Source of the DNA: Trebouxia sp. TZW2008
Lineage: Eukaryota > Chlorophyta > Trebouxiophyceae > Trebouxiales > Trebouxiaceae
Assembly (NCBI GenBank): GCA_002118135.1
Contig: BDIU01000216.1
Span: forward strand, 166 to 64,165
DNA: 64,000 nucleotides
Direction of reading: 5' to 3'
The notes beneath the pieces are model-generated. The model did no database searches. It had not been told where the DNA came from and saw nothing but the letters and a program-made list of their open reading frames with translations. The position numbers and the translations under genes are program-made. Below are positions 1 through 64,000 of the stretch, in pieces. The number at the start of each line of letters is the position of its first letter. Position 1 is the first letter of the stretch.

Positions 1-296
1 CAGGCTCAAGGCAACTGCCAAGGTGGGCTCTTCATTCATGCATGCATTCACTCTTCCATGCATGCATTCATACACACATTCACTCACTCACTCACTCACT
101 CACTCACTCACTCACTCACTCACTCACTCACTCACTCACTCACCCTTTTCTTTGTTCGGTCATTCATTCGTTCGTTTCCTCGTTCGTTCACCCACCCATC
201 CATCCACCATTCCTCCCTCCATCCATGCATCCATCCATTCACTCATTCATGACCGACTTTTGCTAGGCAGGCTCAAGCCGACTGCTAAGGTGAGCT
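1..296 (+). repeat. Exon-end echo pair flanking a (CACT)n microsatellite
   Basis: AGGCTCAAGGCAACTGCCAAG before GTGGGC at 2-28 is repeated as AGGCTCAAGCCGACTGCTAAG before GTGAGC at 269-295. Both read as RLKxTAK followed by a GT donor. Between them, 81-143 is an almost perfect (CACT)16 run, followed by degenerate CATTCATC-type repeats to about 250. The left copy may be the end of a real exon cut by the window edge and the right copy an intronic duplicate. The long His/Ser/Thr reading frames here come from the microsatellite. Confidence 0.6.
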
Positions 297-5368: not shown

Positions 5369-5405
<37 letters not shown>

Positions 5406-9290: not shown

Positions 9291-12200
9291 CTATAGCTTT
9301 GACTGTCCTGTGCCGGCTGTGACCTTCTCTCCCTTCTCCTTCTTCTGCGCAGTGCTGCCATCAAGTCCTTGCACCCCCGGCAGTTCATCATTGCTGACTG
9401 TATTCTTGCCGATAGGTCCAATCATATCAGGATGCTTGCCATGAATCACTCCATCTGTCAATTTGCCAGCCGGTGTGTTACCACTGGGCACTTGCACCCC
9501 CCTGTTACGCAGTAAGTTTCTGGAAGTGAAAGCCTCAATATCTGCGGCGTCTGTCTCCCTGATGGGCACGTTCCATTTCAGCTTCTGCACGATCCCTTCA
9601 TACCAGTCTCGGTCAAGGTACCCCATGTTGATCATGGGCAGTGCACAGAGGGAGGTCGTGCAGCGGATGCTGCTGTCTCGCAGCATGCGCAGTGTGTGTC
9701 GTCCATCAAAGCTTGCTCTGCAGAAGCACACCAAATTGACATGCGTATTGAGTCATACTATCAGAATGTTGAGTGCATGATTGCCTGAGAGCATCACTTG
9801 AGCAAGGTAGCCTATATTGATCATGAATGATGCCCAGAGGGACGTGCAGCGGATGCTGCTGTCTCGCAGCATGCGTAGCGTGTGTCGCCCATCAAAACTT
9901 GCTCTGCAGACACATCAGACTGGAATGTAGCTGCTTCATGCCATCAACATCTGGAGTGCATGATTGTATGAACGCACAACTTGCACAAGATAGCTCATGT
10001 CAATCGTCAGCAGTGCCCAGAGCGACATTGTGCAGCGGATGCTGCTATCACGTAGCATGCGCAGTGTGTGTCGCCCACCAAGACTTGCTCTGCAGAAGCA
10101 CAACAGACTGATACGCATATTGCGTCACACAATTTTGACATTGGGAATGCATGACTGCCTGAGGGCACAAATCAAGCAAGGCAGCCGATGTTTATATGGG
10201 CAGTCGCAGAGCAACGTCGTGCATTGACCGCTGCTGTCTCGCAGCATGCGCAGCCTGTGCCGTCCATCAAAGCGTGCTTGGCTGCAGAAGCACACAAGGC
10301 TGATATGCTGGTCGCCTCATACAAACAAGATTTTCAGTGAATGACAGTCTGCGTGCATGACATGAGCGAGGTAGCCCAAGTTGATCATGGGTGACGTGTA
10401 GAGGAAGCGCTGTGCAGCAAACGCTGCTGTCACGCAACATGTGCAGCATCTGTCGCCCATCAAAACTTGCCCTGCAGACAGGCAAGGCTCATGCTCATAC
10501 GCTTTGTCAGCAGACTTTGAATGTCAGTCAGCATAGCTTCAAGCACCATATGCACACAAGCACACCTAGCAGGAAACATAGGAGCCTGTGTGCATGTCAT
10601 ACAGCGGCGCTGCAAATAGAGAGCTGATGCACAAACATGCAGCCAGGCGCTGTACAAAGCCTCTTTGACTGTAGTACAGCAGCAGTACTGCTTCTACATG
10701 ACTGAAGCATACAGTTGGCATAAGAACAGGTGCTGTACAGAGCCTCTACATTCGTCATACAGCACCACTGCAAATATAAAGCTGATGTGTGCACCTGGCA
10801 TGTGGGTAGGTGTTGTACAACGCTATCACAGTCACCAAACAGCAGCAATGCAACTAGGGAGCTTCATAGAGCCTCCACAGAGTCTCTAGATTTTCCAGAC
10901 AGTCACAAAAGATGTACAGCTCACAGGCTTACCTGGCATGTGAGCGGGCGCTTGGCGGAAGGTGGATCTCTATCTCTGAGCTCTCAGGCACCACCAAGGG
11001 CCGGAAAGACAGTGAATGGGGGGCTATGGGGGTCAGTAGGGTTCCTGGCACAGAGGGGGCAACCATAGGTCCTCCAGCTGACATGCTGTAGGCTGTGGAA
11101 CCTGATGGTGTCGCAATGATCAACCCATCAGCCTGCATGCACACAATGTTTGATGCACAAGGATGGAGATGTCCATTCCATGATGGCTTCCTGGCTATTG
11201 TGCTGTGACTTGCATATAAACCTCGCTGCTCATACTGTGTTCATGCTGTGCGCTGTGGAACCTGCTGGTGTTGCGATGATCAGGCCATTAGCCTGCATGC
11301 ACATAACAAGCAATGCAGGATTGATATGCTTCTGTGTGTGTTTGTTCGCTTGTCGGTAGCTTGCTAAGTGAGGTGCTGCTTGCATGCTTCAGTCGCTGCC
11401 TGTGTGTTCATGCTGTAGGCTGTGAACCTGACAGCGTTGCAATGATCAAGCCATCAGCCTGCATGCACATGACAGTCAAGGTGGGAAGATTGATATAGGT
11501 GTTCAATGATAAAGGGCTGTAATCAGTCGGTGGCAACAGGCCATCGGTATGCATGCTGGTGACATTTGACGCATGATTGCTGATGTGTCTGTGTGGTTTT
11601 CCTGTTATTGTGCCAGCTGTAGGACGTTGGCCAGTAGGCTTTCCTTGATGTCGACAGCCGTGCAACCTGCAGCACATGCCATATTTTGTTTTGGTGATGT
11701 GAGTCAACAAGGGACATACCTGAACAGTGGTGATATGGTGGCCATCCACATATGTTTCCAGCTGGACCATGTTGGGTGAAGCTCCTCTGTCAATCAGGCA
11801 CTCATTCAGGACATGATGCACCCTTTGCAACTGTCCTTCCCTGCAGACATCAGATTTTGATAGCTTCAGTTGGCATGCACTTCTGCAGCCGATCAATTAC
11901 TTCATAGCATAGCATGTGCTGACATGGCATGGCACAGCATGGCCTGTTGGCATAGAGACTGAAACAAGCACAACCCCATAGAGAATACACCTGAAAGTCG
12001 TGTAAAGCAACTCAAGAGAGAAATCACACATTCAACCAGTAATCATCTTCAAATTTGAGTTTCATGCATCAAGACCTGATTGAATACTGTGAAAGCTGAG
12101 GCAGTCTAGGCACATCAGAGTCAGAAGTGGCAATCTGCATGCATGAACAGTAATATATCCTCAAGATGGCTTCAGTGGTCACCAGCAAATTTGTGGTTAC

Positions 12201-14054: not shown

Positions 14055-17000
14055 ATGGGCGACTATGAGAGGAAAGCTAGAGACATGGTCGCTAAGGCCG
14101 AGAAGAAGCTAAAAGGCTACAGCTTCCTTGGGGGAATGGGTGCCAAGTACGACGATGCTGCAGAATTGTTGGAGAGCGCCGGGAACAATTTCAAGCTGGC
14201 CAAGGCATGTGAGTGCTGAGACCGATGAGATCAAGTCTAGACGCTGAGTGCCATGACTATGAGGCAGCCCTGCAACTACAGCTTACGCAGAAGCTTCTTT
14301 GAGCTGCACCAATCTATTTGCAGGGCGAGACGCAGGAGACACATATGCTAAGCTAGCAGAGGTCCATGTCAAGCAGGACAGCAAAGCTGATGCTGCCCAG
14401 GCGTATGTTGAGGCTTCAAAGGCGTACCAGAGGGTAGACAAATCAAGTGAGATGCCTGCTTGCAACCAGCCACAGCAGGAGCAGCGATTGAGCACTATTT
14501 TGTTTGAACAAGTTGTGGCACGGCATCGCTAGCATCTCTCAAAGCTGGTACAGCACACACAGCAATGCTGAGCATGCCAAAAGCCAATCAGCTTCATGCA
14601 TGAGCTGCAAAGCTGCAGTCAGCGTGACAGACTGCACAACACTGCAGCAACAAGTCCCCACCCTGCGCAAACAAGCTGACAGCCAAAGCAAACACTGCAA
14701 GTCTGACTTTCACGGTTGCTGCAGATGCTTTGCGGTGCCTACACAAAGCTGTTGGGTACTACACAGACCTAGGCAGACTCGGTATGGCGGCTAGGAATCT
14801 CAGGGTAAGGAAGCCGCTCTTACATGTGCTGCTATGCCTGCAAAATGTTGAAGTCCATTTGGATCAGAACCTTGTATCAGAGCGCACAAGCTGCGCTTAC
14901 ATGCTCTCTCATGCATGCGTCTGGGGCACAGGTGGTTAAGAGTTAGTGAGCCACTCTTGCATGTGTGTTCTTGTGCACGTCATTTGGAGCCCATCTTGAC
15001 ATTTGCTGCTGCAATCAGCTCCGAGCAAAAGGATATGTTTTCAATGTGCACAGCCCATGGAGCCAACCGTTCAGGGTGCATTGCATGCAACAGAGCTAAA
15101 TCATCGCTCCATATCTGCCAACAATCACATGTTGCCAGGATAAGTTCTGATGACTGTCTGCGTATGCTACATGACTGAATGTATGTCGGCTCAGTGAGAT
15201 AATGCTTGCATTCAGGACGTAGCGGAGACGCAAGAGAAGGCAGGACTCAAGGAAGAGTGCATTGAGTTCTATGACAAGGTACAGCTACTGTTCAAAAGTT
15301 GCTTGGCCTTTGCTGCCTGCACTGTATACAAGGATCACATATGCAGCAGCATCCTCTGCATTTGCATTTGAAGAAACCTGTAATGGCTGTTGACCCATTA
15401 TTTTTGAGCTCACCCAGCAGGTACAGATGATTCTGCGCACTTGCAAGCAGTTGTACTACTCAGCATTCCAGTGTGTAGACTAATGTTATCAGTGCTCATG
15501 TGCACTGCATCAATATCAGCATTGAGCAAAATCTGCTGCTGAACCTATTTGAGTTGGGTCTAGCCCATCCTGCATTGATCAGCAGTGAGTGCTGTACCGA
15601 TCCGCAGCAAACCCAACAAGGCATTATTTGATCATACTGGCTGCGGAGCTCTTTGAGGTTCAGAATCAGAGGTCAGCGTCTAAAAAGTGCCACCTCAAGA
15701 TTGCTCAGTGCAGAAACCGCATGTGTATACTGTGCAGAAACAAGGCAATGACAAACACAGCACGCTGTTTTGGACATGCAGGCTGCAGAGCTGTTTGAGG
15801 TCGAGAATCAAAGCTCAGAGTCCAACAAGTGCCGCCTCAAGATAGCTCAGTACAGCGCCGAGCTTGAGCGCTTCCCTGTTGCCATTGAGATCTATGAGAA
15901 TATTGCCAAGTCCCAAGTGGACAACAACCTGCTCAGATTCAGTGCTAAGGGCAACTTGCTCAATGCTGGTCTGTGTAGGCTGAATGGTATGATCCTGTAT
16001 TTCTGTGACAATGACATTCTCTGGTATTGCCTCTCTTTAGCATGGCATGCTTGAGTTCTACTGCTGTTTCTACCACCTGGACCTGCTGGACATGATCGTC
16101 TGATGTATCAGTGCTGCCAGGATGCCCAGTGGGGCATATGACGTTGCGTGCTCTGTGCGGGCCTCCCGCACAATCTACATAAGCAAGCTTGCTTGCTCAG
16201 GCACGGTGCAAGGCAATGCAGACAGGACATTTGTAGCTATAGGGTTGCTGTAATCGTTGTGCTGTTACAAGTGTGATTGTAGTGCTGTTATGTTCTATAG
16301 TTGCAGTGCTGTACTTCTAGTGCTGTTGTGTGCTGTAGGTTGGGCTTTCACCCAACTCTGTTGTGAGCACACCATTCAGTGAAGTATTTCTGAAAACAAA
16401 GCGTTTGTGCAGTGCCTGTCATGCATGATCAGTGTTTGCTCTGTAGTATAGCTGAACATCAGACACCCTCATTGTTATGCTCAGGATATGCCAGCCTGGC
16501 AAAACAGGACTTGGGCCACACACAAGCCTAGCACCTTTGCTAGAAAAGGTCACCTTGGTTGCTGCCAATCATAGTCGACCTGATCTGTGTTGTCTGCAGT
16601 GGATGATGAATTCACACTCCGTAGTGCAGTTGAGCGGTATGAGGACATTGACAACTCCTTTGGAGGCAGCAGGGAGCACAACTTGCTTGTGGTACGTCTC
16701 TCCCTAGTATTTCTTAAAACACGTGCTGGCAGCAAGATATGCATTTTTGTGCACAGTCACAATGCCTGCCCAAATGCGAGCCTGTCCCCACATGAGTTGG
16801 CAGACATGCAATCTGCTGAAACCAAAGCATAAATGTCTGGCATTTGCAAGGTCAGGGGTTGGGGGGAGAGGGGAGGGCATGGGTGTGGGCTGATATGACA
16901 TATGGACCACTGCAAGCGCCTCATTGTTGACACTGTCCTGAAAAGTGTGTGATGCTTGTCTGCCTAAAGGCTGCAAAGCTCTGCCGTCCTTGTGCTGTGT

Positions 17001-21000: not shown

Positions 21001-22827
21001 ATAAAACAGTGCAGCTGAGACATTTCAGCCTGCAGTAGAGTGAAAACGTCGTGCCTGCCAAAGAAACAGCTACGGATGAGGAGATGTAATGGAGATTTCC
21101 CATATTGACTGCAGGGTTTGACAAATTGGGAGGGTTCCAGAAGGACAAGGAGTCTGAGATGCTGGAGGGCATTCCACTGCAGCGCTTTGGCACCAAATGG
21201 GACATCGCTATGGCCTGCATCTACCTTGCAAGTATAGCTTTTCTTCTCCTGCTTCTTCTTCTGCTTCTTCTTCTGCTTCTTCTTCTCCTTTTTCCTCTTC
21301 TTTGTCTGTGCTGTCTGCTTTCAAGAATAGTGAAGTTTTGTATCTTGAAGATACCTTGGTGCATCAAGTCCAGCACAGTTGACCTTGTTGCTTTGGCACC
21401 AAATGGAACATCGCTATGGCCTGCATCTACCTAGTATAGCTTTTCTTTTCCTGCTGCTTCTTCTTCTTCTCCTCCTCCTTCTTCCTCTTCTTTGTCTTTG
21501 CTGTCAGGAATAGTGAAGTTTGTTCATCTTGTAATTACCTTGGTGCATCATGTCCAGCACACTTGAACTTGTTGCTTTGGCACCAAGTGGGATATCGCTA
21601 TGTCCTGCATCTACTCTGCGAGAACAGCTCTTCAACACTCCATTTGCTCAGCATTGCGCAACAGTGTTGCCTGCATCAACGACTTGTTTTGCTTTATTTG
21701 CTGTGTAGAAGCCAAATTTCTCTTGTGACCCAACCCAAAACACTTGATACCCTTGCTTTTGTCCTGAAGCAGGACGGCAGCAACATCTGTACACGCTTGG
21801 GTCACAAGCGAACTACATATCATTCTGTATTAAGAACAGCATGGACGGCCATTCGTGATTGCTCTCAATCTGCTGCTGCTCTTGATCACACTGGATCTGT
21901 CGCTGCTGGAAATGGAGTGATCTGCTGAGGGTCCAAGCACTGCATGCATGTGTTGACCTGTGTAAGATTGCCAACATTCCCTTGATTCTGCAGCTGAGCA
22001 GATGCACTCTGCAACACCACTTTTGAGCACCTCCTGACCCATTAGATCAGCAAGATCTGGCCCTGCATTTTGTCTGCAGTCCCTGCGCTGCAAGAATGCT
22101 TCCTCTATCTCAGAAGCAACAGTCTTAATCTTGCTGATTTTATGCTGCAGCTGAAGCTAGGCAAGCTGCAGGCAATGCCTTGTCATTTTCGACACCAAAC
22201 CTACCCTTGCCCCCTCCCTTCTCCTGCTATCAACCCTGCCATGGCCCCCTCCTCTACCCCCCCCCCTCCCCCACCAACCCTACTGTTGCATATGCTTGCT
22301 CACCCTTCCAGGCTGTCGATGCTACTGTAGGCTCTGCTGGTAGCTATGTCAGCGGCAACCCCATAGTGGTGGATGGAGCACAGTGGCTGTACAAGAAGCC
22401 TGGTGTGCCTGTGGATGTGGTGCTGAAAGCATCACGAGGTGGGTCTACTGCTCCTGATGTGCTCCAGCAAGACATGTTCAGTAATATATAGAGCTAAATT
22501 GCCAGCCCTGCACATGGGCAGTGTTGGTTCTAGGTTGTGCCAGGCCTTTCAGCAGGCCTTTCTAGCTAAGCAGTATGGCCCTTCTGCAGACAGCATACTG
22601 TTTGAATAGGTTGCAAAGCACAGCATGGCTTGCTGTTGTCATATTGCTGTTGTCGTACCCTGGACATACATCCAACCGCCAGGTGCCCTTCTTCTATGTG
22701 GGGCCAAGCACGTTGTTACCTGAAAGCGGATACAGCTGTGCCCTTGTTTACTGAAACTCACCCTGCTTGTCATGCAGAAATGGAGAAGAAGAAGAAACAG
22801 GAAAGCCAGGCATCTAGCAAGCTGTAG
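18067..22827 (+). CDS. DECR2: Peroxisomal 2,4-dienoyl-CoA reductase, ends in SKL
   Basis: SDR enzyme that uses NADPH to reduce 2,4-dienoyl-CoA during beta-oxidation of unsaturated fatty acids. Eight exons: 18067-18142, 18257-18360, 18843-18987, 19564-19712, 20432-20531, 21115-21231, 22331-22438, 22778-22827; phases close to 282 residues. Seen: TGGGSGIG nucleotide-binding loop at 11-18, GRRQNVISEAADKL, GDVRQLSDCEKAV, LDILINAAAGNFLAPAE, SGCIINISMTLHYGATWYQT with Lys158 of SAAK, RSLALEWGSHGIRVSGIAPG, KWDIAMACIYLAS, VVDGAQWL and a C-terminal QASSKL. These follow plant DECR closely, including the PTS1, so a peroxisomal location is well supported. The last exon is very short and encodes a Lys-rich tail. 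Confidence 0.95.
18722..18812 (+). repeat. (AAG)n-type low-complexity tract in an intron
   Basis: Purine-rich GAAGAAGAAGAA and GATGATGATGAAGAAG runs give a spurious Glu-rich frame. The tract lies in the intron before exon 18843, where purine strings are unusual for the acceptor side. Confidence 0.7.
19311..19345 (+). repeat. Short echo of DECR exon 4 acceptor
   Basis: GCAGTGTTTGACATTGACAC at 19313 repeats the exon 4 start at 19562 (acceptor, then V-F-D-I-D-T). The copy is then broken by a TIR repeat that begins at about 19344, so about 250 bp separates echo and exon, mostly made of that inserted element. Confidence 0.75.
19344..19521 (+). mobile_element. MITE-like TIR element, copy A
   Basis: Member of a family of about 160-180 bp elements found six times here. 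Ends resemble CAGTGACTTCTCTTTGTAAG and its inverse. The interior has repeated (T)AAGGACA words and a central CACTGCATTCTGACTGCAGT-like segment. This copy is diverged (CAGTAAACTTTGTTTGCAAG at the left end). There is no coding capacity, so it is probably a non-autonomous DNA transposon. Confidence 0.7.
19770..20000 (+). repeat. Downstream echoes of DECR exon 4 end (3 copies)
   Basis: The 3' part of exon 4 with its donor recurs in the following intron. The copy at about 19785-19862 reads IINIRMSLHYGVTWYQTHAS, one residue longer blocks aside almost intact. Shorter copies lie at about 19873-19927 and 19933-19993, each ending in GCAAAG(G)T(T)ACGT. The two short ones are 60-65 bp apart. Confidence 0.85.
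20279..20350 (+). repeat. Echo of DECR exon 5 start
   Basis: GCAGGCTGCCCTGGAAAAAA at 20280 begins a copy reading AALEKMTRSLAPGMG, 150 bp upstream of the real exon start at 20432 (AAIDSMTRSLALEWG). Both are preceded by CTTCTTC-rich pyrimidine tracts, so the duplicated unit includes the branch and acceptor region. Confidence 0.85.
21236..21640 (+). repeat. Downstream echoes of DECR exon 6 end with CTT-rich tracts
   Basis: The end of exon 6 (TTTGGCACCAAATGGGACAT through the donor) is repeated at about 21390-21438 and 21573-21620. Each copy is followed by a (CTT)n-rich intron start, so the unit of about 195 bp spans exon end, donor and intron. Stops and changed bases mark the extra copies. Confidence 0.85.
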
Positions 22828-41700: not shown

Positions 41701-42424
41701 TTTGGTGACGTTTGCCTTACACTGCGCATGTCAATGGCCAACAGCTGCGTCGAATATACTGATACAGACATACCCTTGCCTTCCACTGCTTTGATATGTG
41801 CTTGTGAGGTACGTGTAGTCCAGTGGTTTCAGAAGCAAATCATGCTCCCAAGCTTCAGTGCTGCAGAAGAGGTATGTGCTTAGTCAGCTGGATGGAGTGT
41901 TGCAAGACGCATGTCCCTGCGTTCTTCTGCATTGGCATGCATACAGGCAGGAAGCATGTGTAACTGTGTGAATCACAGAAGCAGATGTGTCTTTGGTGGT
42001 GCCTTCCTTACCCTGTGCATGTCCATGGCCAACTGTGCTTGAGTTCCTGCATTATGCACTTTAGCTATGGCAGATAGAATTATCTTTAAGCAAAGGTCAA
42101 CCTGCTGTCATTTTGCTGCAGGTGAAGCATTTCTTGTATAGTCAAGAAATGGTGTCCACCTTAGCAGCACATGGCATCAAGCCAGATGACGTTCTAGGAA
42201 GCCTGCTTGGACCCTGGGGGGCTTCCAGTCCTCAAACTGATCTGAAACGGCACGAAATGGAAAAGCTGTTGACTGCAGCATCAGCAGACAGCTCTGAAAC
42301 CAGATCAGCAAAGCAGGATCTGGAGAAGCTGCTTGACGTAACATTGCCAACAGAGGAGTCATCACAGGCTGAAACAGACCCTGGAGTGCAGGACAGCAAG
42401 CCAGACACAAAGGACGATGCATGA
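38711..42424 (+). CDS. Unknown protein with two hydrophobic segments and helical repeats
   Basis: Not recognised. Five exons, 38711-39157, 39656-39899, 40274-40521, 41184-41378 and 42122-42424, with phases closing to 478 residues. The start is the first ATG of an open first exon and could lie elsewhere. Features: hydrophobic TAATAFALLALPLSGYFPDL near 130-150 and LALSSFLPVAVYLGMARWIL near 165-190. The middle is alpha-helical (SEFVLQQHLEHAVQGAAADL, LRQRGMRLTIISILEDLAIK, RRNIELVRLQFAQRFKHEDL). The acidic, probably disordered tail ends DTKDDA. It may be a chloroplast or ER membrane protein with armadillo-like helices; this is inference. Head to head with the MFS gene. Confidence 0.75.
39160..39300 (+). 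repeat. Echo of the two-TM gene's exon 1 end
   Basis: GCAGCAACTGCATTTGCTCT occurs in the real exon end near 39092 and again near 39209. The copy reads AATAFALLALSLSGYFPDML followed by SEAHN, 117 bp downstream. The donor GAGGTACACA has become GAGGCACACA, so the copy has lost GT. Confidence 0.88.
41480..41960 (+). repeat. Echoes of exon 4 end of the two-TM gene
   Basis: The exon end (AAATCACGCCTCCAGGCTTC AATGCTGCAGAAAAG then GTGTGC) recurs at about 41492-41530 and 41833-41880 (AAATCATGCTCCCAAGCTTC). The second keeps a GTATGTGC donor. A further longer intronic duplication (CTGCGTTCTTCTGCATTGGC, CATGTGTAA) accompanies them at 41626 and 41915. Confidence 0.8.
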
Positions 42425-47705: not shown

Positions 47706-47724
47706 GCACTGGTCACGCACTGGT

Positions 47725-48858: not shown

Positions 48859-49377
48859 ATGCCTGTCGTGCAAATTCTCATCAAGATTTACGACCAGTCA
48901 GGTCACAGAGTGGAAGAGCTCATGGAGCAGGAGCTGCCACCTGGTGGACCTAACACAAACTTTAGAAGGGAGGCCCAGGATATTGCAGGTGTATTGTACA
49001 GTGAACGCAGGGCAGAGCTGATGCAGCGTCAGCCATTTAGGTGCTATGCATGTGGAAAGGATCCATTCTCTGAAGCAGGCTCCAGCCATCCTTTCGATTT
49101 TGACTCAAACTATCCTGATACATCCTGCGTCTACCATGTGCTGCCTCACTGTCTGAACAAAGACAGTAGTTGTCTAAAGAAGATATGTGGAGAGATCAAT
49201 TTGTACAAGCGACCTGGGCGTGACTGTGACCCTGTTGACAAAGCTGGCAAGATCTGCTACACTTGCGGTGAAGTTGCTGAGCTGAAAAAGTGCAGTCAGT
49301 GTAACCTGGCCAAGTACTGCAGCAAACAGTGCCAGAGGCTTGGGTGGTCTGCTCATCAAAAGGAGTGTCAGAAATGA
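48859..49377 (+). CDS. MYND-type zinc-finger protein, paralogue 2
   Basis: Intronless, 172 residues, start MPVVQILIKIYDQSGHRVEE. About 90 percent identical by eye to the copy at 46.0 kb, with the same finger (CYTCGEVAELKKCSQC, KYCSKQC, HQKEC) and the same extra cysteines. Changes are mostly silent or conservative (F63 to Y, D78A to S, GTSC to DTSC, HV to NL), so both copies look functional. The stop follows QKECQK directly; the 3' flank still matches paralogue 1. Confidence 0.87.
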   Translation: MPVVQILIKIYDQSGHRVEELMEQELPPGGPNTNFRREAQDIAGVLYSERRAELMQRQPFRCYACGKDPFSEAGSSHPFDFDSNYPDTSCVYHVLPHCLNKDSSCLKKICGEINLYKRPGRDCDPVDKAGKICYTCGEVAELKKCSQCNLAKYCSKQCQRLGWSAHQKECQK

Positions 49378-50567: not shown

Positions 50568-53500
50568 CTACGATACAGCAGCAGTGCCAGATGAGAATCC
50601 TGGTTGCTCATAGCGATAACCCCCGGTGGGGGCCACTCCAAAGCCTTTGGGGTCAGCAAATACATTTTCCAACAATTGTCCCTTTTCCTGCAAAACAGAC
50701 AGCACCCCCATTCAGGACATGTGCAACTCAGTGCAAGGACTCACGCCTTGATGCAACAGAAAAAGCATACAGACAAACGACCAGGTGCAGAGCACATGTA
50801 CACATCTTGCGTTCTGTTGTCTTTACTTTGCCATCAGCATCAAGGCCAGCACAAGTGGCAGGCATGACCTATGCAGAAACCTATACACAATTGTAAACAT
50901 TCATATGCATGCTTACTGTATGCTATCCAATGCAGACACACAGATTGCCTTAGGGTGCACAAAAATCAAAGGTACACTGTGTGAATTCACTTACTGGCTT
51001 GGGTGACTCATCAGCAAACTTGACTGCATCCTCAACTTCCGCCAGAACTTCCTTCTCAATGTCCTTCACATCCGACTCACTCATGAGTCCCGCATCCAAA
51101 GCAAACTTCTTGAACTGTGGGATGGGATCCCTTGCCTGTAAACACAACACAGGGCAACATGAGCCAATTTTTCTATTCTGAATGTATGCTAGGCAGGCTC
51201 AGCAGGCCCGAGCTAGGTAGGTACTGGAGTAATCAACTGTCTCCCACCAGTTTGGTCCTGTGCTATCCTAAACCTTTTTTTTGAGCATGAAGGGAGGTGG
51301 AGTCCTTGTAAACAATTGTTATGAGATAGCTTCTCAAAAATTTGCTGTTGAGAAGTGCGTTGCTAGCAATGATGCCCTATGTAGGACACAGCCTGACATG
51401 GGGAATTTCCGGGCCCATCTTGCGGCTAGCATGGTGGCCCCGTTCTGAGGTAATGATGTGCATGCAGCATTCAGGCTTTTTGAATTCTGGCCTGTTGGAA
51501 GCCCTGCTGTGACAGTGAGGCTGTCTCAGCAACACAATGCACTCTCAAGGGTAAGTGCTCAGGCATGCTTTGCCAGCAAACTCACTGTGCAAGCAAACTG
51601 TCAAGTACATCCCAGGGATGCTGTTGATCAAACATGTTATCAGACGCCTGCTAGGCATACATTTGTGCATGCTGCACATTTAACCTATGTACACAACAAA
51701 TTAAGCATGTTTTCAAGCATGTCATAGCTCGCATGCATTGAAGACAGCCCTTGGATCAAGCTTTTTTTACAGGGTTTAGGGTTTAGACCTAAACCTTTGA
51801 CACCCCAGCTAGTCACGTAACGTGCTACAAATGAGCACACACCGCCCAATGCTCTATGTCAGTATCAAGCATGCACACAGATGCCTGTTAGTCACGTAAT
51901 GTGTTTTAGATGAGTACACACTGCCCAGTACTAGGCCCAGAAGTGCACAGACATGCTTTACAAGCATATTACTCTGCCGGCATGCTGTCAAATACAGTCC
52001 ATGGATCAAGCATGTTTCCAGGCACCCTGAAAGCTGCATTTTGACATGTGTATGCCAAAAACAGAAAGACAGAAGAGGAAAAAAGGGAAAAGGTACAGAA
52101 CACACACCGCCCAGTGCTCTTTCTCCTTTTTGTCTCTTAGCTCATCAGGGTCTGCCAAGGAGTGCCCTCGGAAACGGTACGTCTGTGCCTCTATCAAAGT
52201 GGGTCCATCACCCCTCCTGGCTCTGTCAATGGCTTCTATTGCTACATCTCGCACCTGTTCCATCAAAGTTATATCTTGAAGTCTGCTTCTACATGCAATG
52301 TGTTCAAGTGTACTGTTACCCAGCCATTGGACAAGCTGCATGACATGTGTGATGCCCTTCAGCGTGCACAAACAACTTGAGTGACAACCCATGCTGGAAG
52401 CTCTACATTACTGTCGCAGAGATAGGATCTGACCCATGATATGCCCATGCATGGACTGCAGGAAATAGTAATTTGTCGCCCATATATTGTTCGCTGCATA
52501 CAACATGGGCTTTCACATAAGACCCGGCTTCCTGGCATCCATGGCATCGACCATGAGGCCAGCCATGCCAAAGGCAAGGGCCTTTTGCCGACAAAACATG
52601 ACTGAATAATGAGACAACACATTGATGAGTATGTACACAAAATCTCACCTTCCTGACGTCCATGCCATCAACCAACACACCTGGCATGCCAAATGCAGGG
52701 CCTTTCTTGCAGATAGATGGTGCCTCATATCCTGCTGTGGTGTTCATAATGCATACAGCATGAGTAGCATCAGGAGAAAGCAATGAGTCAACCAAATCTC
52801 ACCTTTCTGACATCCATGCCGTCAACCAAGACGCCTGGCATGCCAAATGCAGGACCCTTCTTATAAATGAAAGGTGCATCATCTCCTGCTGTGGGATTGG
52901 TGGCCCTGTTGTGATTCATGCCAATGGCCCACAAATTGTTTTCCACCACAAAGATGCAAGGTAGTTTGTACAGGGACGCCATATTCAGGCACTCATAGAA
53001 CTGGCCTGCAAATCAAGGCAACGCAGCTTACTGAGCAACGGAAATTGTGTGGCCTTGTTGTGGTTCATTCCAATGGCCCGCAGGTTGTTCTCCACCACAA
53101 AGATGCAAGCTAGCTGGTACAGGAACACCACATGAAAGTCTGCTGTTTGGCAGGCACATGTGTTTGCACCATGCATATAGAAGCAACTGTTCTGGCTATG
53201 TTGACAATATGAGAATCTGCTACTGTCATTGAACAATACACATAAACGCAACTGTTGTGTCTGCGTTAACAGCGTGAAATCCTGCTCTTTGACAAGCACA
53301 TGTCTTTGCGCCATGAATATAGAAGCACATGTTGCGTGAATGACATGAGACGCCACGTGTGACAGGCACATGCGTGAGTGCTGATGACTTGCTCAGGCAC
53401 AACAGCCTGGCTGTTGCGATTTCAATAGACCCAGATAGATTGTGCTGTAAGTAGGTGTCGAGGCAGACAGGACAGAGTCTCACCATTGTTTGCTGTGCCA

Positions 53501-55244: not shown

Positions 55245-58200
55245 ATGGCTAGGCTCAAAGGCAAGACTGTAATTGTCACGGGCGCAAATCAAGGCATCGG
55301 CAGGTGTGCGCAGCGTCTGTGACGACGGTCTAGAGGACCGACAGTTTTATGCTTAGACTAGAATCGATGTTGTTCCAGGGAGGTTGCAACTGATCTGGCT
55401 GGCCAAGGCGCCACAGTACTTCTGGCTTGTCGCAATCTTGACAGTGCCAGAAGCTGCGCAGCAGACATCAGGTACGAGGTTGCGCCTTCGATGCCAAGCT
55501 GGCAGCAGTCCGTTTGACCTGAGCAGTTTGCTCTTTGTTTGACAAACACCATCCCTTGACCATCTATTCGTGTGCAGGGTTGCACATCCCGAAGCAGACG
55601 TGGTTGTAGGTCCAGCTCTAGATCTTGCCAGGCCAGACAGTATCAGGCATGCTGCTCATGTGTTGTCTGGCATTCACTGTCACTTCCATGCCCTGCTGGA
55701 CTGCTCTTGATACATATGCAGACAATTTGCAGAGGCATTCCAGCATCAGAAGAGGCCACTGCACATCCTGGTCAACAATGCTGGGGCCAACTACCTGCCA
55801 GAGTCATATACAGATGAGGGAGTTGGTGTCTTGTGTCAGGTGACATCCCATGGTCATCTGTGGACTGTTTAGCTGTTGCACATGCTATATGAACCTACCA
55901 CTTCTGAGAAGTGACAGTGGACGTGTGAAGGATCTGCCTTCAGTTCTCCAAGATCTTGCATGAATTTCATGACACCTCCAAACATAGTGCTAAGCTGAGG
56001 CTGGGCAGCAACAGAAGTGCTGTGTTTGAACAATTTCACACCGCTTGTCATCAGTCTGCAATCATACTTCAATGCATCACGGCGAAGCTGTAGCCTTACA
56101 GGCTGATCACAATACCCAAGTTCTGCACTGGTGAACTTGCCCATTCTGCCCATCATCAAAACATTGACTTGCATGACCTTGACAGCATGCTAGCTCATGT
56201 TGACTATAGGAAGGCGTTTGGCACTTTCTAACCATACAAGTTTGCACTAATGCAGTCCTTGCTGGTCATGGAGCACAGTCAGACAGGCTTAGACACAATG
56301 GCTTGCCTGCTTACGTGTCACTCAGCTGATTGCCATGACAACCTGTGGGGACATGCTTGCTCATGTTGGCAGGCGTACCCATAACAGCCAAAACCAGAGC
56401 CAGGCTATGCCTGTCATACATTGCAAAGATTGAGCAGTGGGTTACATTCAGGCCAGCATTGCACTGATGCTGTTGTTGGCAAAGTACTGGCTGTAGAGCA
56501 GCACACTCATTTGAGCATCTAGATATTAGATCTATGCATGATGTTCTGCCATGGTCTCATCACAATGATGTCGTGATGCAGATTGGTTACCTTGGACCAT
56601 TGCATGTGACATGTTTCTAAGAGCCTCAGCTACTGACATCAGCGCCATCTAGAATTCTCAGTGTGTCATCCAGTATGCACCAGCAAACAAAGGCACGTTT
56701 TCCCTTGATCTTTTTCATATGTTTCACTGTTGTGCACTTCAGGTGTATTTCCTGGGGCCATATCACCCAACCCGTCTGTTGGAGCCTCAGTTATTGTCAT
56801 CTGCGCCATCTAAAGTGGTCAATGTTCCCTCCTTCACGCACCACTAAGGCTCAGGGCACAGCATTGCAAAGCAGCCGCCAGTTCACACTTTTGTCTGTAG
56901 GTCAACTAACTGGGACCGTATCACCTGACGCATCTTTCAGAGCCTCAGCTGTACCCATCAGTTCCTTCCAGGATGGTCAATGTGACCTCCGTCATGCACC
57001 ACTCAGGCTCAGCAATCCCATCAATATTCTTCATGCTTGTCATGTCTTCCACTGCAGGTGAATTACCTGGGGCCATACCACCTAACCCGTTTGTTGGAGC
57101 CTCAACTGTTATCATCAGCACCGTCTAGGGTAGTCAATGTGTCTTCCATCATGCACCGCTCAGGCTCAGTGCACAGCGATGTCAACAGATTCCTCAGAGA
57201 CTGGAACAAAGGCAGCCAGTACTCAAATACCAAGCTTGCAAACGTGCTGTTCGCCTATGAGGCACAGCAGCGGCTAGGGCCAAGAGGAGTGCAGGTAGGG
57301 TTTGCTCACTTTGCTTGCGGAGAACCGTACTTGAGTGCGTGGATGCTTGCTGTGTGCGCTGTTTGAGACTCTGGAGCAGCATCTCCAACAGGTACCCAAG
57401 GGGAATGCAGGTAGGGTTTGCTGTCCCTGCTGGCGAAAATCCACGCCTGCATTGAGCCTTGCTGTGTGTGACCTTCATGCATTTGTGATCAGTCAGTGAC
57501 AAGTAACGATGATAACAATAATTACATATTCCAGCATATACTGCTAGGTATGTGTGGCACAAATCCTATCTCGCCAGGCAGGCTTGTTTTGAGCCTCATG
57601 ATATGGACGCCTGACGAGTAGCTGCCTAAGATTGCTGCATTCCTGCACTGCACACCTGGGAGCAGTGTCATCAGCACCTATGCCAGTCCCTGATAGCCAT
57701 TCGCCTGAAATTATTCACCCACAGGCATCAGGCTGCTGCATTCCTGTGATGCAGACCCTGGAGCTGTGTCTTGAAACATCCATGCCAACTCCCGTTCAAT
57801 ACTTCATCTGCCACCTGCACGAACATTACTTGACTACTACACATTCATTGCTGCTGCAGCCCTGTGCCGCAGACCCTGGAGCAGTATCATCTCACAGTTA
57901 CCTCAAATCTGGCCTTCCTTCTCCCATCAGATGATTTGTACACAACCTACATGTGCGCATGAGCATGATCGACTCATTAGTACCCATTGCTGGTGCAGTG
58001 TTAGGCTGCAGACCCTGGAGCAGTGTCTTCCAGCATCTGCGCCAACTTGCATACCTTTTGCCATTGTGTGGCTCATCTGCAACCTACATGCATGCGTGAG
58101 CAACAGTTGACTTTCATATACCCAATGCTGCTGCAGTCCTGCGCTGCAGACCCTGGGGCAGTGTCCTCCAACATTTACACTAGCTTCTGATCACCTTTTC

Positions 58201-60718
58201 TATCAGGATTTCGAAAAATGCATGCAATTGCTAATCAATGTCATGTGCTCAAGACCCTGGAGCAGTGTCTTCCAACATTTGTGCCGACTCCCGCTGACCA
58301 ACTAGCATCATGTGGTTCATACGCAACCTTCATGCACCAACAAGAGACGGTGCTCATTAGCTCACTGCTGCTGCAGTCGTGTGCCGCAGACCCTGGAGCG
58401 GTGTCTTCCAACATATATGCCAACTCCTGCTTGCCTTCTCCCATCAGGTGGTTCGTCCGCAACCTGCATGACCAACAGAGATGGCGCTCAGGCTGTCATA
58501 CATGCTGCTGCAGTCTTGTGCCGTAGACCCTGGAGCAGTGTCTTCCAACATTTATGCAAACTCCCGCTTACCTTCTCCCATCAGATGGTTCATCCGCAAC
58601 CTCCATGCACCAACTACAGATGGTGCTCAGGCTGTGATTCATGCTGCGACCACCCCCTGGCGACCTGTCACTACGCCCCCCGGGCAGCCATACACACCTG
58701 AGTCTTCAGAGCTGCGGGTAAGCAGAGTGTGTTTAGGTTGTAGGACCAGAAATCCAAAACAAAACTTCTGCCCAGAAGTGTCATAAAGTGTCATAACAAG
58801 AACCCCTGCATGCAGGAGCTTCCCTTCCTGATGTCTTTCGTTACAGTATTGCTCATGCTGATGATGCTAATCATGGTTTTCACAAGCACAGCATTCGTAG
58901 TGATAGCCATAGTGGTGCTGCCTAAGCAGACCTGTTGATGGGGGCACTGATGTCAGCAGATGGCACTACAATATTGCTCCATACATACAGCACAAGCTGT
59001 TGTCTTTAATGATTTCTTGGGTTGGGACAAGACTGGTGCCACACACAGCTAGCAGGCATGCTGGGCAGGATCATGATGCTCACCAGCAGTATTGGTTGCA
59101 GCTGCTGAACTTGCTCTGATGCTGTCAATGTCAGCAGTGCAGCAAGTCAGTTTTGGATCAATACATTCTCATCGCATTACACCTGTAATACCTGTGCTGG
59201 AATGTGTAAGCTCTTGTCATCATTATGTACACTGCAGTGCTACGCAAGGAGAGCTTTTCCATCACCAGCTATTGGTTTATTCTCAAGTGAGGCAATAAGC
59301 CTGCTGTGTGAACAACAAAACGCTGCCTGGGCAGTCAATGCTGTTGCTCATAGTTCCTTAGAATGCCATTGATTGTTACTTCTCCACTACATTTCTATGC
59401 AAGGGGAGCTTTTGCATTACCCGCCATGGGGTGGTGCTCAAGTGAGGCAACAGGCCTGCTGGGTCAATTGCAAAAGGCTGCCTGGGATTTGGGTGCTACT
59501 GCGCACAGTTGTTTGGACCACTGATCTTACCATCACTTCCCACTGCATTTCTATGCAAGGGGTGCTTTTGTATTACCAGCCACTGAGCAGTGCTCAAGTG
59601 CGGCAACAGCCTCTGTGGGTTAACTGCAAAAGGCTGCCTGGCAGTGAGTGCTGTTGTGCACAGCTCCTTGGATTGCTGATTTATTGTTACTTGTGCACTG
59701 CAGTTCTATGCAAGGGGAGCTTTTGCATCACCAGCCATTGGTTGATGCTCAAGTGAGGCAGCAAGCCTGCTGTGTGAACTGCAAAAGGCTGCCTGGGCAC
59801 AGAGTGCTGTTGTGCACAGCTCCATGGTTTGCTGCTTTTATTGTCATTTCTGCGCTGCAGTTCTATGCAAGGGGAGCTTTGGCATCACCAGCCATTGGGT
59901 GGTGCACTAGTGAGGCAGCAGGCGCAGTGGGTCAACTGCAAAAGACTGCCTGGGCAGTCAATGCTGTTGTGCACAGCTCCTTAAATCGTTGATTCTATTG
60001 TCACTTCTCCACTGCAGTTCTATGCAAGGGGAGCTTTTGCATCACCAGCCATTGGGTGGTGCTCAAGTGAGGCAACGGGCCTGCTGGGGCAACTGCAAAA
60101 GGCTGCCTGGGCAGTGAGTGCTGTTGTGCACAGCTCCTTGGACTGGCCAGTGCGCAGGCTCTCAGGAGGTACTGCTCTTGCAATGTCTTCTTCACTGCTA
60201 ATGCTGCAGCAACACATGCAAAGGGCTGACGGGGCTGTGAGTACTGATGTGCACAGCTCCCTGGCCTGGCTAGTGCGCAGGCTCTCAGAGGGTACTGCGT
60301 CTGCTTCACTGCTGCTAATGCTGCAATAGCCAGAACAGCAATAATGAGTACGCTTTCTAACATTGTTTGTGACAATGCCATGTGCAGTATGAAAGTTCCT
60401 TATGATCAGTGTTTTATCATGCACAGCTTGCTGGTCAATAAAGAGACCTGCATGATATTCGATACTCAGCGATGTAATGCAGACAAGGTCAATCGTTTGG
60501 TTGCCTGAGAAAGCAGGTGGTTGCAGCTGGCACAGTGTCTGTGCAGTGCTTGATCCTGTGCAGCCAAGGTTGATGCTGTTGTGCTGCTTGCAGGCCGCCT
60601 TCTCTCCGCCACACATCAGGTTCCATCGCATCCAGCAAGCTACAATACCAAGCTATCAAGCAATCTATGGGATGTTTCTGCCAGCCTTTGTCAAGTTTCA
60701 AAGGACGTCAAGAATTGA
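55245..60718 (+). CDS. Short-chain dehydrogenase, retinol-dehydrogenase 11-14-like
   Basis: NADP-dependent SDR of the family that includes retinol dehydrogenases and WWOX-like plant enzymes; substrate unknown. Eight exons: 55245-55303, 55379-55471, 55578-55646, 55722-55839, 57058-57294, 58514-58717, 60018-60168, 60594-60718; phases close to 351 residues. Seen: GKTVIVTGANQGIGR (TGxxxGIG at 12-19), ATVLLACRN, LDLARPDSIRQFAEAF, LHILVNNAGANYLPES, VNYLGPYHLTRLLEPQLL, SRVVNVSS with Ser142/143, QYSNTKLANVLFAYEAQ with catalytic Y168-x3-K172, AVDPGAVSSNIYANSRLPSP, IRNLHAPTTDGAQAVIHAAT and VKN at the end. Exon 3 seems to use a GC donor (TATCAG then GC at 55647). Introns 4 to 6 are mostly exon-echo arrays. 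Confidence 0.93.
56575..57015 (+). repeat. Splice-junction tandem array at SDR exon 5 start (3 echoes)
   Basis: Acceptor plus first codons of exon 5 (VNYLGPYHLTRLLEPQLLSS) recur upstream near 56580 (IGYLGPLHVT, stop, then EPQLLTSAPSRI), 56743 (VYFLGPYHPTRLLEPQLLSS) and 56898 (VN, stop, LGPYHLTHLSEPQL). The real exon starts at 57058. Spacing is 155-163 bp. Each copy keeps a CAG acceptor. Confidence 0.93.
57370..57480 (+). repeat. Echo of SDR exon 5 end
   Basis: CCAAGGGGAATGCAGGTAGG GTTTGCT at 57395 copies the exon end and donor CCAAGAGGAGTGCAGGTAGG GTTTGCT at 57281. The offset is 114 bp, and the following intron words (GAAAATCCACGCCTGCATTG, GCTTGCTGTGTG) are repeated. Confidence 0.88.
57630..58500 (+). 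repeat. Splice-junction tandem array at SDR exon 6 start (7 echoes)
   Basis: CTGCAG acceptor and codons for ADPGAVSSNIYANSxLPSPI recur seven times before the real exon at 58514. The motif (C)AGACCCTGGAGC lies near 57646 (weak), 57750, 57871, 58008, 58147, 58251, 58388 and 58525 (real). Spacing alternates around 104 and 121-139 bp. The last echo, at 58376, is nearly intact through IRWFVRNLHD before a frameshift. Confidence 0.94.
59230..59995 (+). repeat. Splice-junction tandem array at SDR exon 7 start (5 echoes, about 155 bp)
   Basis: TTCTATGCAAGGGGAGCTTT (codons FYARGAF) starts the real exon at 60018 and recurs near 59236, 59392, 59547, 59701 and 59859. Each is followed by exon-like sequence through LQKAAW and GTGAGTGCTGTTGTGCACAG, which in the real copy is coding. 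A further downstream echo of the exon end lies at about 60235-60300 (CACAGCTCCCTGGCCTGGCT). Confidence 0.93.
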
Positions 60719-61478: not shown

Positions 61479-64000
61479 ATGAATCTTGACCAACGTGATA
61501 GTGGAGGTGTCAAGTGGGGCGAGAACGTAAAAAGGTCTGCTCCTGGTTTACAGACAGCACATGCTCAACACTCGAAGGCACTCTGCTTGCTTTCAGCAAA
61601 AAGCATCTCTTGGGCCAGCAAGTGCACAGTCAAGTCAAAGCTGCATATACCCACAGCCTTAGCATCTTCTGGTCTGCAGCTTTCTGAAAGGCCGGTCGTT
61701 TCCTGGAACCATCAAGCTCAGCAGGAAGGACAAGCCACCTGTATCCAGTTCTCAAGCAGGCAGCAATGATTCGGCAGATATAGCAGAAGCATTCTCAAAA
61801 TCACGATCACCGTCCTCAGAGTCCCTTGGCGTCTCCACTTCCTCTCAAGTAAGAGCTCAAGTGCCTTAGACTCTTATCTGATCACTTTTGTCGCGAGTAT
61901 ACAAATTGCAGATTGCAGACACACAATTGTGCATGTCAAGCCATACATATGATTCTACATGAATTATACATTCATACATGTTATTGCGAGCTCAGACTTG
62001 CAGGCTTCTCGTTACATGCAGCATGACTTTGCCACATGGCAAGTGTCAGTAGTGGTCGTCAGCTGTGCATGCCAGAGCAAGCAAAACCCATCAAAGTGCC
62101 TTTTCACCCTTGATCTTGGCTGACAAGGTACGCTTGATGAGTTCTGCTTGCTCTGACAGTCACAGCCGGTGACCACCATTGAATTGACAGGGAGTACCAT
62201 GGAGTTGTTCTTTGTTCAGCCTCTGCCTTCCCCAACGACTTGTTCAGCTGCACTGGGAAAGGAGGCAGATCCACTCAAGGAAGGGTGTTGACCTGTGTTG
62301 ATGAGTCATTTGATCAGGTCAACAACCTGGGGGATGTTTGTTATGCCAACACTGTGATCAGCTGCAGCGGTGGCAATGCATGCTCATGCAGGATGTTACA
62401 GACTCAGGGCACCTCACATCCCCAAGCAACCCTTCAACCACCCCCAAGGCTGCAGCAGGGGGACCCGCCACCCCCAACCCTCAAGGCCCCACCCCCTCTA
62501 GTCCTGTCAGGCCCTCAGCATACCGCAGCATGTCAGATACACGGGTTAAGAAGTTTGATAAGCTGCTAGGAGAGCAAGTGGTAAGATCTCCATGCCATTT
62601 TGCCCCCTCTTCTCCTATCAACAAGCCTTCAGCTTATCGCAGCATGTCAGGTGCATGGATGGAAAAGTTGATGAGCTGTTTGGAGAATGAGAAGTCAAGA
62701 TTCCTGTCCCCTCCAGTCCTGTCAGCCCCTCAGCCTGTCACAGCATGTCAAATACGCGAGTCAAGAAGTTTGATAAGCTGCTAGGGGGACAAGTGGTAAT
62801 GCTGCCATGCCAGTGTTTGCCATCTAGCCCTTGGCCTGCCAAGGCATGTCAAAAGTGCAAGCCAAACGTTTGATAAGCTGCAATCAGAACAAGTGACCTT
62901 TCCCCTGTAGTCCAGGCATGCCTGCAGCCTTTTGCAGCATGTCAGATACACGGGTCAAGAATTTTGATAAGCTGCTAGGGGAACAAGCTAATAAGCTTGC
63001 CATGCCAGTGTTTGCCATCTGGCCCACTCAAAACTGACAGTCGTGAAGGATCTGTATTGAAATGCATGACATACAGCTTTGTGAGGTGCCTAGTGCTGTC
63101 AGACCAGGACATTCAGATGCAAGCGCACAGTAGATGCACCCATGAATTAGTCAGCTGACGACATCTTGGGCAAAAGCACTTTGAGTGTGCACTTGCAGCT
63201 AGTCAGCTGCGGGGATTGATTACTTGATTGATTGATACCTGCGCCTGCGCAAACGCGAGGCAGGTAACAGGTATGCCTCATCCTGTTTTTGTAGGCCACA
63301 CAGGAGGCTCATTTTGACACCCAAAGGTCACTTTTGGGGACATTTGGCCACAAACAACTCGCAGCTATACACATCAGGCCTTTGAACAGATTTCATGCTT
63401 GTACGTACTTCACTGCTTCTGTCTAGAACATTGTGCTTGCACCTATCCAGGCACTTTGATGTGCGTGCAAGCATCAACATGTGTTGGACGATCAACATTC
63501 AACACAAGTGAAGATCCTGCGGTGGGCTAACTGTGCTGGCAAGGTGCAAGACAGATCAAGCTTTACTGCACATTCCCAAAGTTGGTTGGCCGCAGGTTGA
63601 CTTCGACGTGCTGAAGGAATTGTCATGGAGTGGGACACCCAGTTAGACAGGTCCATTCCCACAAAACGATCTGAAATCTTAGCTTGTGCAATTTAACAGG
63701 CTTTTCTGTTGGCCGCAGGTTGATCTAGACATGCTGAAGGAGCTGTCATGGAGTGGCACACCTGGGGATCTGCGGCCGCTGTGTTGGCAGTTACTTCTGG
63801 GCTACTTGCCTCCCAACAGAGATAGAAGGTCAGTGCTTGATCCTGGGCTGCTTCTGCCAAGATGAGACGGGATGCCTGTTGACCTAGACATGTCTTTGCT
63901 TCATTGGTAGTGTTGGCACTCATGACCATTGGAGCATGATACCAATAAACAAGTCATTGTTTGTCAAGCCACAGGACTGCATCACCACACTGATACTTCC
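61479..64000 (+). CDS. TBC1D22: TBC-domain Rab GTPase-activating protein, TBC1D22-like, 3' part outside window
   Basis: Rab-GAP of the TBC1D22 (Golgi, PI4KB/ACBD3-linked) type. Exons visible: 61479-61534, 61680-61848, 62392-62580, 63719-63828, with phases fitting and the gene continuing past the right edge. N-terminus: MNLDQRDSGGVKWGENVKS then FLKGRSFPGTIKL, a Ser-rich linker (RSPSSESLGVSTSSQ), a Pro-rich stretch, and RVKKFDKLLGEQVVDLDMLK ELSWSGTPGDLRPLCWQLLL GYLPPNRDRR. That last block is the start of the TBC domain in TBC1D22 proteins (xKFKQLL...LRxLSWSGxPxxxRPxxWxLLxGYLP). The catalytic Arg and Gln fingers lie beyond the window. Confidence 0.85.
62585..62995 (+). repeat. Splice-junction tandem array at TBC exon 3 end (4 echoes)
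   Basis: The end of exon 3 (PSAYRSMSDTRVKKFDKLLG EQV then GTAAG) recurs at about 62598-62690 (PSAYRSMSGAWMEKLMSCLE), 62705-62800 (QPVTACQIRESRSL... in another frame, with CAAGTGGTAATG kept), 62835-62895 (decayed) and 62910-62995 (CATGTCAGATACACGGGTCA). Units are about 95-120 bp. Confidence 0.9.
63585..63660 (+). repeat. Echo of TBC exon 4 start
   Basis: GGCCGCAGGTTGACTTCGAC then GTGCTGAAGG at 63589 copies the acceptor and first codons of the real exon at 63711-63760 (GGCCGCAGGTTGATCTAGAC). Offset 122 bp. The copy reads VDFDVLKELSWSGTPS and then stops. Confidence 0.9.

What the first reader, a model, noticed from the sequence alone, without database searches (positions are those of the whole stretch)
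1..64000. Genome-wide style of splice-junction tandem arrays (exon echoes)
At about twenty exon edges, in nearly every multi-exon gene here, a segment spanning the exon edge, its splice site and 40-120 bp of intron is tandemly repeated into the intron. Copies are diverged and carry stops and frameshifts, yet many keep AG or GT splice signals. They occur on acceptor sides (NAD kinase exons 6 and 7, alpha-SNAP exon 5, syntaxin exon 7, SDR exons 5-7), donor sides (MFS exon 6, DECR exons 4 and 6, TBC exon 3) and both (MFS exons 5, 7, 8, PDHA exon 4). Unit lengths cluster at 105-195 bp. Tandem duplication is known as one route to new introns; a whole gene neighbourhood whose introns grow mainly by copying their own junctions is, to my knowledge, not a described genome habit. 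It could create decoy splice sites or alternative exons.
Basis: partly seen in the sequence, partly recalled or inferred. Interest (0 to 1): 0.92.

Follow-up and report, generated by a model that had tools for sequence, protein, structure and literature searches.

The report
Decayed exon-edge copies in algal introns
In this Trebouxia-like green alga, local tandem duplications of about 150 bases have left decayed partial copies of exon ends, often with the splice site, inside the introns beside about a quarter of the exon edges tested; the copies look like neutral debris, at a frequency that seems far above that reported for fly or worm.

Summary
The window is 64 kb of a 68.5-Mb Trebouxia-like genome. 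With exon maps from Trebouxia orthologues (3 genes) plus a self-trained gene finder, 79 of 334 exon edges in 308 kb (window plus 25 other stretches) have a partial copy of the exon end in the adjoining intron; 0 of 334 in shuffled introns and 0 of 334 in foreign introns. Periods: median 150. 11.1% of exonic bases have a >=80% identical copy in a flanking intron; a paper using another method gives 0.08% for fly, 0.06% for worm, about 2% for human.

Tandem duplication fills introns in general: in the three mapped genes interior probes are echoed as often (106 of 322) as edges (12 of 36); in gene-finder models edges keep a 1.9- to 2.5-fold excess, which a detectability simulation can explain partly or wholly. 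Echo codons diverge as expected if the echo is neutral. Best reading: ~150-bp tandem duplication placed nearly at random, then neutral decay, exonic halves staying recognisable longest. A moderate junction bias is not excluded; splicing of echoes needs RNA.

The parts
9614..10480 (-). NAD kinase exon 7 (9294-9717) acceptor-side array: start of the exon plus acceptor repeated in the intron, period 186-193
   Evidence: identities of four echoes to the exon edge 0.94, 0.86, 0.85, 0.81 going into the intron
11082..11510 (-). NAD kinase exon 6 (10933-11132) acceptor-side array, period about 160-167; the nearest echo is read as an exon by the gene finder
15627..15855 (+). alpha-SNAP exon 5 (15782-15968) acceptor echo, period 142
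   Evidence: gene identity
19643..19870 (+). 2,4-dienoyl-CoA reductase-like exon 19564-19712, donor echo, period 148
   Evidence: gene identity
20157..20459 (+). same gene, exon 20432-20531, acceptor-side echo, distance 155
   Evidence: score 48
21184..21614 (+). same gene, exon 21115-21231, donor-side array, period 206
25052..25292 (-). Syntaxin gene, exon 24958-25104, acceptor echo, period 179
   Evidence: HMM model; Pfam Syntaxin on the N-terminal part
30523..30844 (-). Spinster-like MFS exon 8 (30745-30892), donor echo, period 194
30786..31054 (-). MFS exon 8, acceptor echo, period 153
   Evidence: two annotations of this gene in Trebouxia C0005 differ at this exon
32269..32509 (-). MFS exon 7 (32444-32594), donor echo, period 120
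32518..32808 (-). MFS exon 7, acceptor echo, period 216
33042..33747 (-). MFS exon 6 (33686-33855), donor-side array of 114-bp units
34210..35308 (-). MFS exon 5 (34353-34446), array on the acceptor side with periods about 110/222; a 68% array alignment also spans the donor
37473..37759 (-). MFS exon 2 (37404-37527), acceptor echo, period 150
41341..41886 (+). Exon 41184-41378 of an unnamed gene, donor-side copy at 493 bp
   Evidence: HMM model only
52637..52894 (-). Plastid-type PDHA exon 4 (52803-53005), donor echo, period 154
52900..53133 (-). PDHA exon 4, acceptor-side echo, period 149; the detectable match stops 21 bp short of the edge
56620..57177 (+). Short-chain dehydrogenase exon 57058-57294, acceptor-side array of about 158-bp units
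   Evidence: Pfam adh_short
58240..58647 (+). Exon 58514-58717, acceptor-side array of about 137-bp units (seven echoes)
   Evidence: HMM model only
62551..62959 (+).
   Evidence: score 68; TBC name not confirmed

Best explanation
The echoes are remnants of short (about 100-200 bp) tandem DNA duplications that struck this Trebouxia-lineage genome at positions only weakly, if at all, tied to splice sites. Duplications inside introns, or across one exon-intron junction, could be tolerated if the original outer splice site stayed in use; they add intron sequence and leave a partial exon, often with a spare splice site, in it. The extra copy then decays neutrally while the real exon is held by selection, so the exonic half and the splice motif stay recognisable after the intronic half has faded. 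Shown: the copies, mostly direct orientation, period, spread over the sampled genome, a codon pattern fitting a neutral echo. Inferred: the duplication mechanism (replication slippage or end-joining type), the splice-choice filter, the growth of introns by it, and that echoes are normally not spliced in.
For: Direct copies prevail: 548 direct against 55 inverted local matches, counted slightly differently. Local duplications cover 64,715 of 308,163 bp and 26,143 of 123,780 intron bp. In homology-mapped genes interior and edge rates agree: 106 of 322 and 12 of 36. By alignment coverage over all models, edges are crossed in 56 of 334 cases against 20% of positions 150-400 bp into the intron, ratio 0.83 (0.63-1.06) (this misses echoes that end within 12 bp of the edge). 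Intron flanks beside the edge are echoed like interiors, 29 of 214 and 238 of 1838. Exon-echo mismatches by codon position are 14.4, 11.9 and 24.4%, third/first-two ratio 1.86, near the 2 expected if only the exon is constrained. 22 of 25 gaps in exonic parts shift the frame. Matches fade just past the splice motif: 30 of 75 end 0-15 bp into the intron. Noncoding neighbour pairs have median identity 76% (n=163) and exon echoes 80% (n=75); the simulation gives about 76 and 80% at equal age.
Against: Over all models, edge probes hit 2.4 times as often as interior probes (1.5-3.8), and the HMM-only excess stays 1.9-fold in introns up to 900 bp. An earlier placement test had 55 of 110 arrays crossing an edge against 30.7 expected (9 of 16 against 5.2 in the mapped genes). 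If some junction-crossing duplications are lost to selection, as is likely, the true excess is larger. The exon share of units is not uniform: units with under 40 bp of intron are 6 of 72 against 19.3 expected (scaled share departs from uniform, p=0.0016). Acceptors carry more echoes than donors, 48 of 167 against 31 of 167 (p=0.07). Gaps in exonic echo parts are fewer per mismatch (25 per 905) than in noncoding pairs (332 per 5097).
Confidence: 0.7

Rival explanations
1. Duplication is actually targeted to exon edges, for example through a transcription- or splicing-coupled lesion, so junctions are a preferred source and new copies push older ones into the intron.
For: Edge/interior ratio 2.4 (1.5-3.8) over all models, 1.9-2.5 in HMM models; 55 of 110 arrays cross an edge against 30.7 expected; units tend to be centred on the edge; in NAD kinase exon 7 echo identity falls steadily with distance, 0.94 to 0.81.
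Against: Ratio 1.0 in the three homology-mapped genes; intron flanks beside the edge are not enriched (29 of 214); simulation gives ratios of 0.7-1.3 for echo divergence up to 0.2, 1.9-3.6 at 0.25 and 5-6 at 0.3 from detectability alone; the distance gradient over all 28 multi-copy edges is not significant, nearest copy more similar in 19 and less in 9, p=0.20.
Confidence: 0.18
2. Echoes are kept because they work: decoy splice sites or alternative exon starts.
For: AG kept in 34 of 41 acceptor echoes; 16 of 45 acceptor and 4 of 27 donor echoes hold a site within 6 bp scoring at least as high as the real one; fewer gaps per mismatch than in noncoding pairs; two annotations of the Trebouxia C0005 MFS gene differ in exon 8.
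Against: Codon-position pattern fits neutrality of the echo; 22 of 25 gaps shift the frame; periods divisible by 3 are not favoured (18 of 72 against 32 and 22; p=0.11); GT kept in only 13 of 21 donor echoes.
Confidence: 0.08
3. The copies are assembly artefacts.
For: Assembly method of the genome is unknown to me; near-identical copies are missing (none of 163 neighbour pairs at 95% or more).
Against: Nearly all copies differ by 10-35% with their own indels, which assemblers do not invent; two annotations of one Trebouxia C0005 gene, a strain sequenced with PacBio, imply two versions of the same exon there.
Confidence: 0.03

Closest known systems
Intron gain by tandem genomic duplication (PMC3443670, passages read; PMC4974935, abstract start in search listing)
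   Same: Short tandem duplication at coding/intron boundaries, tolerated because splicing removes the extra copy.
   Different: There an exonic AGGT segment is duplicated and a new intron appears; here the copy carries one splice site of an intron and lies inside it.
Tandem exon duplication and mutually exclusive exons (PMC9013439, passages read)
   Same: Exon-like sequence beside its parent exon in the neighbouring intron.
   Different: That survey looks for duplicated exons that may be expressed; here copies are mostly partial and decayed, at a much higher frequency (11.1% of exonic bases against about 2% human, 0.08% fly, 0.06% worm; methods differ).
Minisatellites / intronic tandem repeats
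   Same: Head-to-tail local arrays.
   Different: Longer units (median 150 bp), few copies (51 of 79 echo edges have one), old, and they run into coding exons.

Membership tests
Intron gain by tandem genomic duplication | Copies of one duplicated exonic segment supply both splice sites of a new intron, so the two flanking exon ends are copies of one another | tested here: not met
   A link joins the two flanking exons in 0 of 168 introns. The 21 introns of the mapped genes are free of bias; in HMM genes, exons linked to one another had been filtered out beforehand. Whether any intron is new was not tested.
Tandem exon duplication / mutually exclusive exons | Copy spans a whole exon with both splice sites | tested here: inconclusive
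   0 of 72 nearest echoes include >=95% of the exon (p=0.054 against a 5.1% expectation), but 4 of the 224 kept exons lie >=90% inside an array alignment.
Tandem exon duplication / mutually exclusive exons | Copies are spliced into mRNA | not testable with these tools
   No RNA data for this genome.
Introner / transposed intron family | Related sequence at many dispersed sites | tested here: inconclusive
   The one array searched genome-wide (59230-60143) matches only its own neighbourhood, 2 places; other arrays were not searched.
Tandem duplication (minisatellite-like) | Direct, local, head-to-tail copies | tested here: met

The most novel reading that the evidence does not exclude
Trebouxia went through a genome-wide phase of ~150-bp tandem duplication that favoured exon edges, so introns grew partly by shedding decaying copies of their own junctions, while the spliceosome learned to ignore arrays of near-equivalent splice sites; this makes the genus a natural experiment on splice-site choice.
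Probability: 0.22. Interest if true: 0.82.

Novelty: new variant of a known kind. Interest (0 to 1): 0.6.

Why it matters
Here 21% of 123,780 intron bp is recognisable local duplication, and exon ends are copied into flanking introns at a rate that looks more than a hundred times that reported for fly and worm and several times that for human (methods differ). It places competing splice sites, some scoring as well as the real one, beside real sites, a ready test of how a spliceosome picks the right one. It also warns that gene finders may call echoes as exons: mine did in NAD kinase, and two Trebouxia C0005 annotations disagree at such a spot.

Tried and rejected
Tried: dispersed repeat family (one array, no). 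Distance gradient in arrays (suggestive in single arrays, p=0.20 overall). Acceptor excess (p=0.07). Period modulo 3 (p=0.11). Selection sparing splice signals (AG and GT retention near what I expect from neutral decay, by hand). Difference between donor and acceptor units (p=0.75). Strand bias of TGCAG in introns (576 against 575: none). A first edge profile with unfiltered HMM exons was contaminated by repetitive coding sequence and set aside. A placement test (55 of 110 arrays crossing, 30.7 expected) ignored detectability; I weigh above it, but it points towards an edge excess. Rows dropped before counts: edges next to introns under 60 or over 2200 bp (30-2200 and in the intron-length comparison; longer minima where probes needed room); HMM exons with score under 8, length outside 40-500 or low-complexity proteins; exons that were themselves echoes of better ones; periods outside 60-260 for the 72-row tests (3 of 75). 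In the MFS map the first 36 residues of the orthologue and a 5-base last exon were not used; with the other orthologue PDHA exon 1 is split in two. Searches ended in script errors (the gap count printed before its error is used); reruns are.

Full report
WHAT THE WINDOW IS. The window is bases 166-64165 of contig 208 of a genome of 68.5 Mb in 527 contigs. Its pyruvate dehydrogenase E1-alpha is 82% identical to Trebouxia sp. C0010, its NAD kinase 89-90% to Trebouxia C0006 and C0004, its spinster-like transporter 70-73% to Trebouxia C0010 and C0005, so it is a Trebouxia or a close relative. Size and GC (about 49%) fit published Trebouxia genomes (PMC12712428 and PMC11523091, passages read).

EXON MAPS. 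Other genes rest on a self-trained HMM gene finder, with a TGCAG-like acceptor. Alpha-SNAP and dienoyl-CoA reductase were confirmed against solved structures, syntaxin and a short-chain dehydrogenase by Pfam. In the sampled loci, seven approximate proteins matched Pfam families: dihydroxy-acid dehydratase, 5'-3' exonuclease, WD40, ribophorin I, SET, topoisomerase, MYG1.

THE ECHOES ARE REAL. Local direct matches number 548 at E<=1e-3 in 308,163 bp (window and 25 other stretches), against none in one block-wise dinucleotide shuffle; they cover 21.0% of the sequence and 21.1% of the intron bases of the gene set. Probes of up to 80 exon bases plus 8 intron bases find a copy in the adjoining intron at 79 of 334 edges and in 31 of 42 genes, with 0 of 334 in shuffled and 0 of 334 in foreign introns. 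In the three mapped genes it is 12 of 42 edges. By alignment instead of probes, 75 edges have an echo, 17 in the window and 58 in 19 of the 25 sampled loci. 5,007 of 45,268 exonic bases (11.1%), and 756 of 4,156 (18.2%) in the mapped genes, have a copy of at least 80% identity in a flanking intron; the foreign-intron control gave 0. A survey with a different method reports about 2% for human, 0.08% for fly and 0.06% for worm (PMC9013439, passages read). Two kinase genes elsewhere, picked by eye from the 134 profile hits because neighbouring hits covered the same part of the profile, show the same structure, one with several copies.

WHAT THE COPIES LOOK LIKE. Period median 150, 5-95% range 107-208; exon part median 70 bases (n=72). 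Direct matches outnumber inverted ones 548 to 55 (the two were counted slightly differently). Of 79 echo edges 51 have one copy, 28 two to seven. Many detectable matches stop just beyond the splice motif: 30 of 75 end 0-15 bp into the intron. In NAD kinase exon 7 four echoes match the exon edge at 94, 86, 85 and 81% going into the intron.

JUNCTION-TARGETED OR RANDOM? With all models, edge probes hit in 76 of 248 cases and intron-interior probes in 238 of 1838, ratio 2.4 (1.5-3.8); exon-interior probes in 12 of 157; intron probes lying right beside the edge in 29 of 214, like interiors. In the mapped genes the rates are equal: 12 of 36 and 106 of 322. In HMM models they are 31 of 148 and 63 of 584 for introns up to 900 bp, 66 of 250 and 334 of 3162 up to 2200 bp, so restricting to short introns, which are less likely to hide missed exons or intergenic DNA, does not remove the excess. 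Measured by alignments that cross the edge by at least 12 bp on both sides, edges (56 of 334) are crossed slightly less often than deep intron positions (20%), ratio 0.83 (0.63-1.06). An array-placement test gave 55 of 110 crossing against 30.7 expected. Detection differs: an exon-echo pair diverges on one branch, an intron pair on two. Simulation with random placement and full tolerance gives expected edge/interior ratios of 0.69-0.94 for echo divergence 0.03-0.16, 1.2-1.33 at 0.2, 1.9-3.6 at 0.25 and 5-6 at 0.3. Weighting by the observed echo identities I estimate by hand about 1.4-1.6 (not a tool result). So random placement suffices for the mapped genes; in the HMM models a bias of up to about two-fold remains possible, more if junction-crossing duplications are often lost to selection. 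Units with little intron are too rare (6 of 72 with under 40 bp, 19.3 expected), which could be a filter by splicing (inference).

FATE OF THE COPIES. Exon-echo mismatch is 14.4, 11.9 and 24.4% at codon positions 1, 2, 3: about what results if the echo is free and the exon constrained. 22 of 25 gaps in exonic parts shift the frame. Gaps are fewer per mismatch than in noncoding pairs (25/905; 332/5097), partly expected because only the echo branch can carry them. AG is kept in 34 of 41 and GT in 13 of 21 alignable cases. 29 of 45 acceptor and 11 of 27 donor echoes hold a site scoring above 3 within 6 bp, against 12.7% and 14.5% of random intron windows; in 16 of 45 and 4 of 27 it scores at least as high as the real site. 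Decoys are thus present, but no RNA was available to ask whether they are used. No intron of 168 has flanking exons that are copies of one another (pairs of linked HMM exons had been filtered out before).

AGE. Neighbouring noncoding pairs have median identity 76%; 4 of 163 reach 90% and none 95%. Of 75 exon echoes 2 reach 90%. Steady duplication should leave more young copies, so activity may have been a past burst, or near-identical copies were collapsed in assembly. In Trebouxia C0005 two annotations of the same MFS gene, with 0 mismatches outside the exon 8 block, use different versions of exon 8, which implies that this strain carries two versions of the exon's start as well; a C0006 protein resembles the second version.

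CONSEQUENCE. Introns with a local duplication have median 900 bp (78 of 168), others 374 bp (90 of 168); long introns also have more room for one.

LITERATURE. Ten searches of the held open-access library listed nothing that, by title and abstract start, describes this habit. Four lichen-alga genome papers were searched by term: 'tandem' occurs 0 times in each and the passages shown mention no intronic duplications. Subscription papers are not held, so this is no proof of absence.

LIMITS. Most gene models are HMM-based and unverified by RNA; only three genes (42 edges) have orthologue-based maps. The sample is 308 kb of 68.5 Mb. The comparison with fly, worm and human crosses methods.

The confidence in the best explanation was lowered from 0.72 to 0.70 and in edge targeting raised from 0.15 to 0.18, because the HMM-only rates had been left out; the introner and intron-gain rows were restated, and one search was added.

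Noticed in passing
sampled genome: Almost no young local duplications: 4 of 163 neighbouring noncoding pairs reach 90% identity and none 95%, which suggests a past burst or assembly collapse of recent copies.
   Followed up: partly
45853-46608 and 48736-49374 (+): Two closely similar neighbouring reading frames; a gene-finder protein that contains the first has a MYND finger (Pfam PF01753): probably a gene duplication.
   Followed up: no
HMM intergenic stretches, 17.9 kb: Local duplications (E<=1e-6) cover 3.2% of predicted intergenic DNA but 18.5% of predicted introns; the intergenic sample is small and the HMM tends to fuse genes, so this is only a lead.
   Followed up: no
1295-8307 (+): A long predicted alanine-rich, internally repetitive protein of unknown function.
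   Followed up: no
proteins P0241 and P0243 (Trebouxia C0005): Two public annotations of the same MFS gene differ at exon 8 (and in the start chosen), so echoes may mislead gene prediction in this genus.
   Followed up: partly
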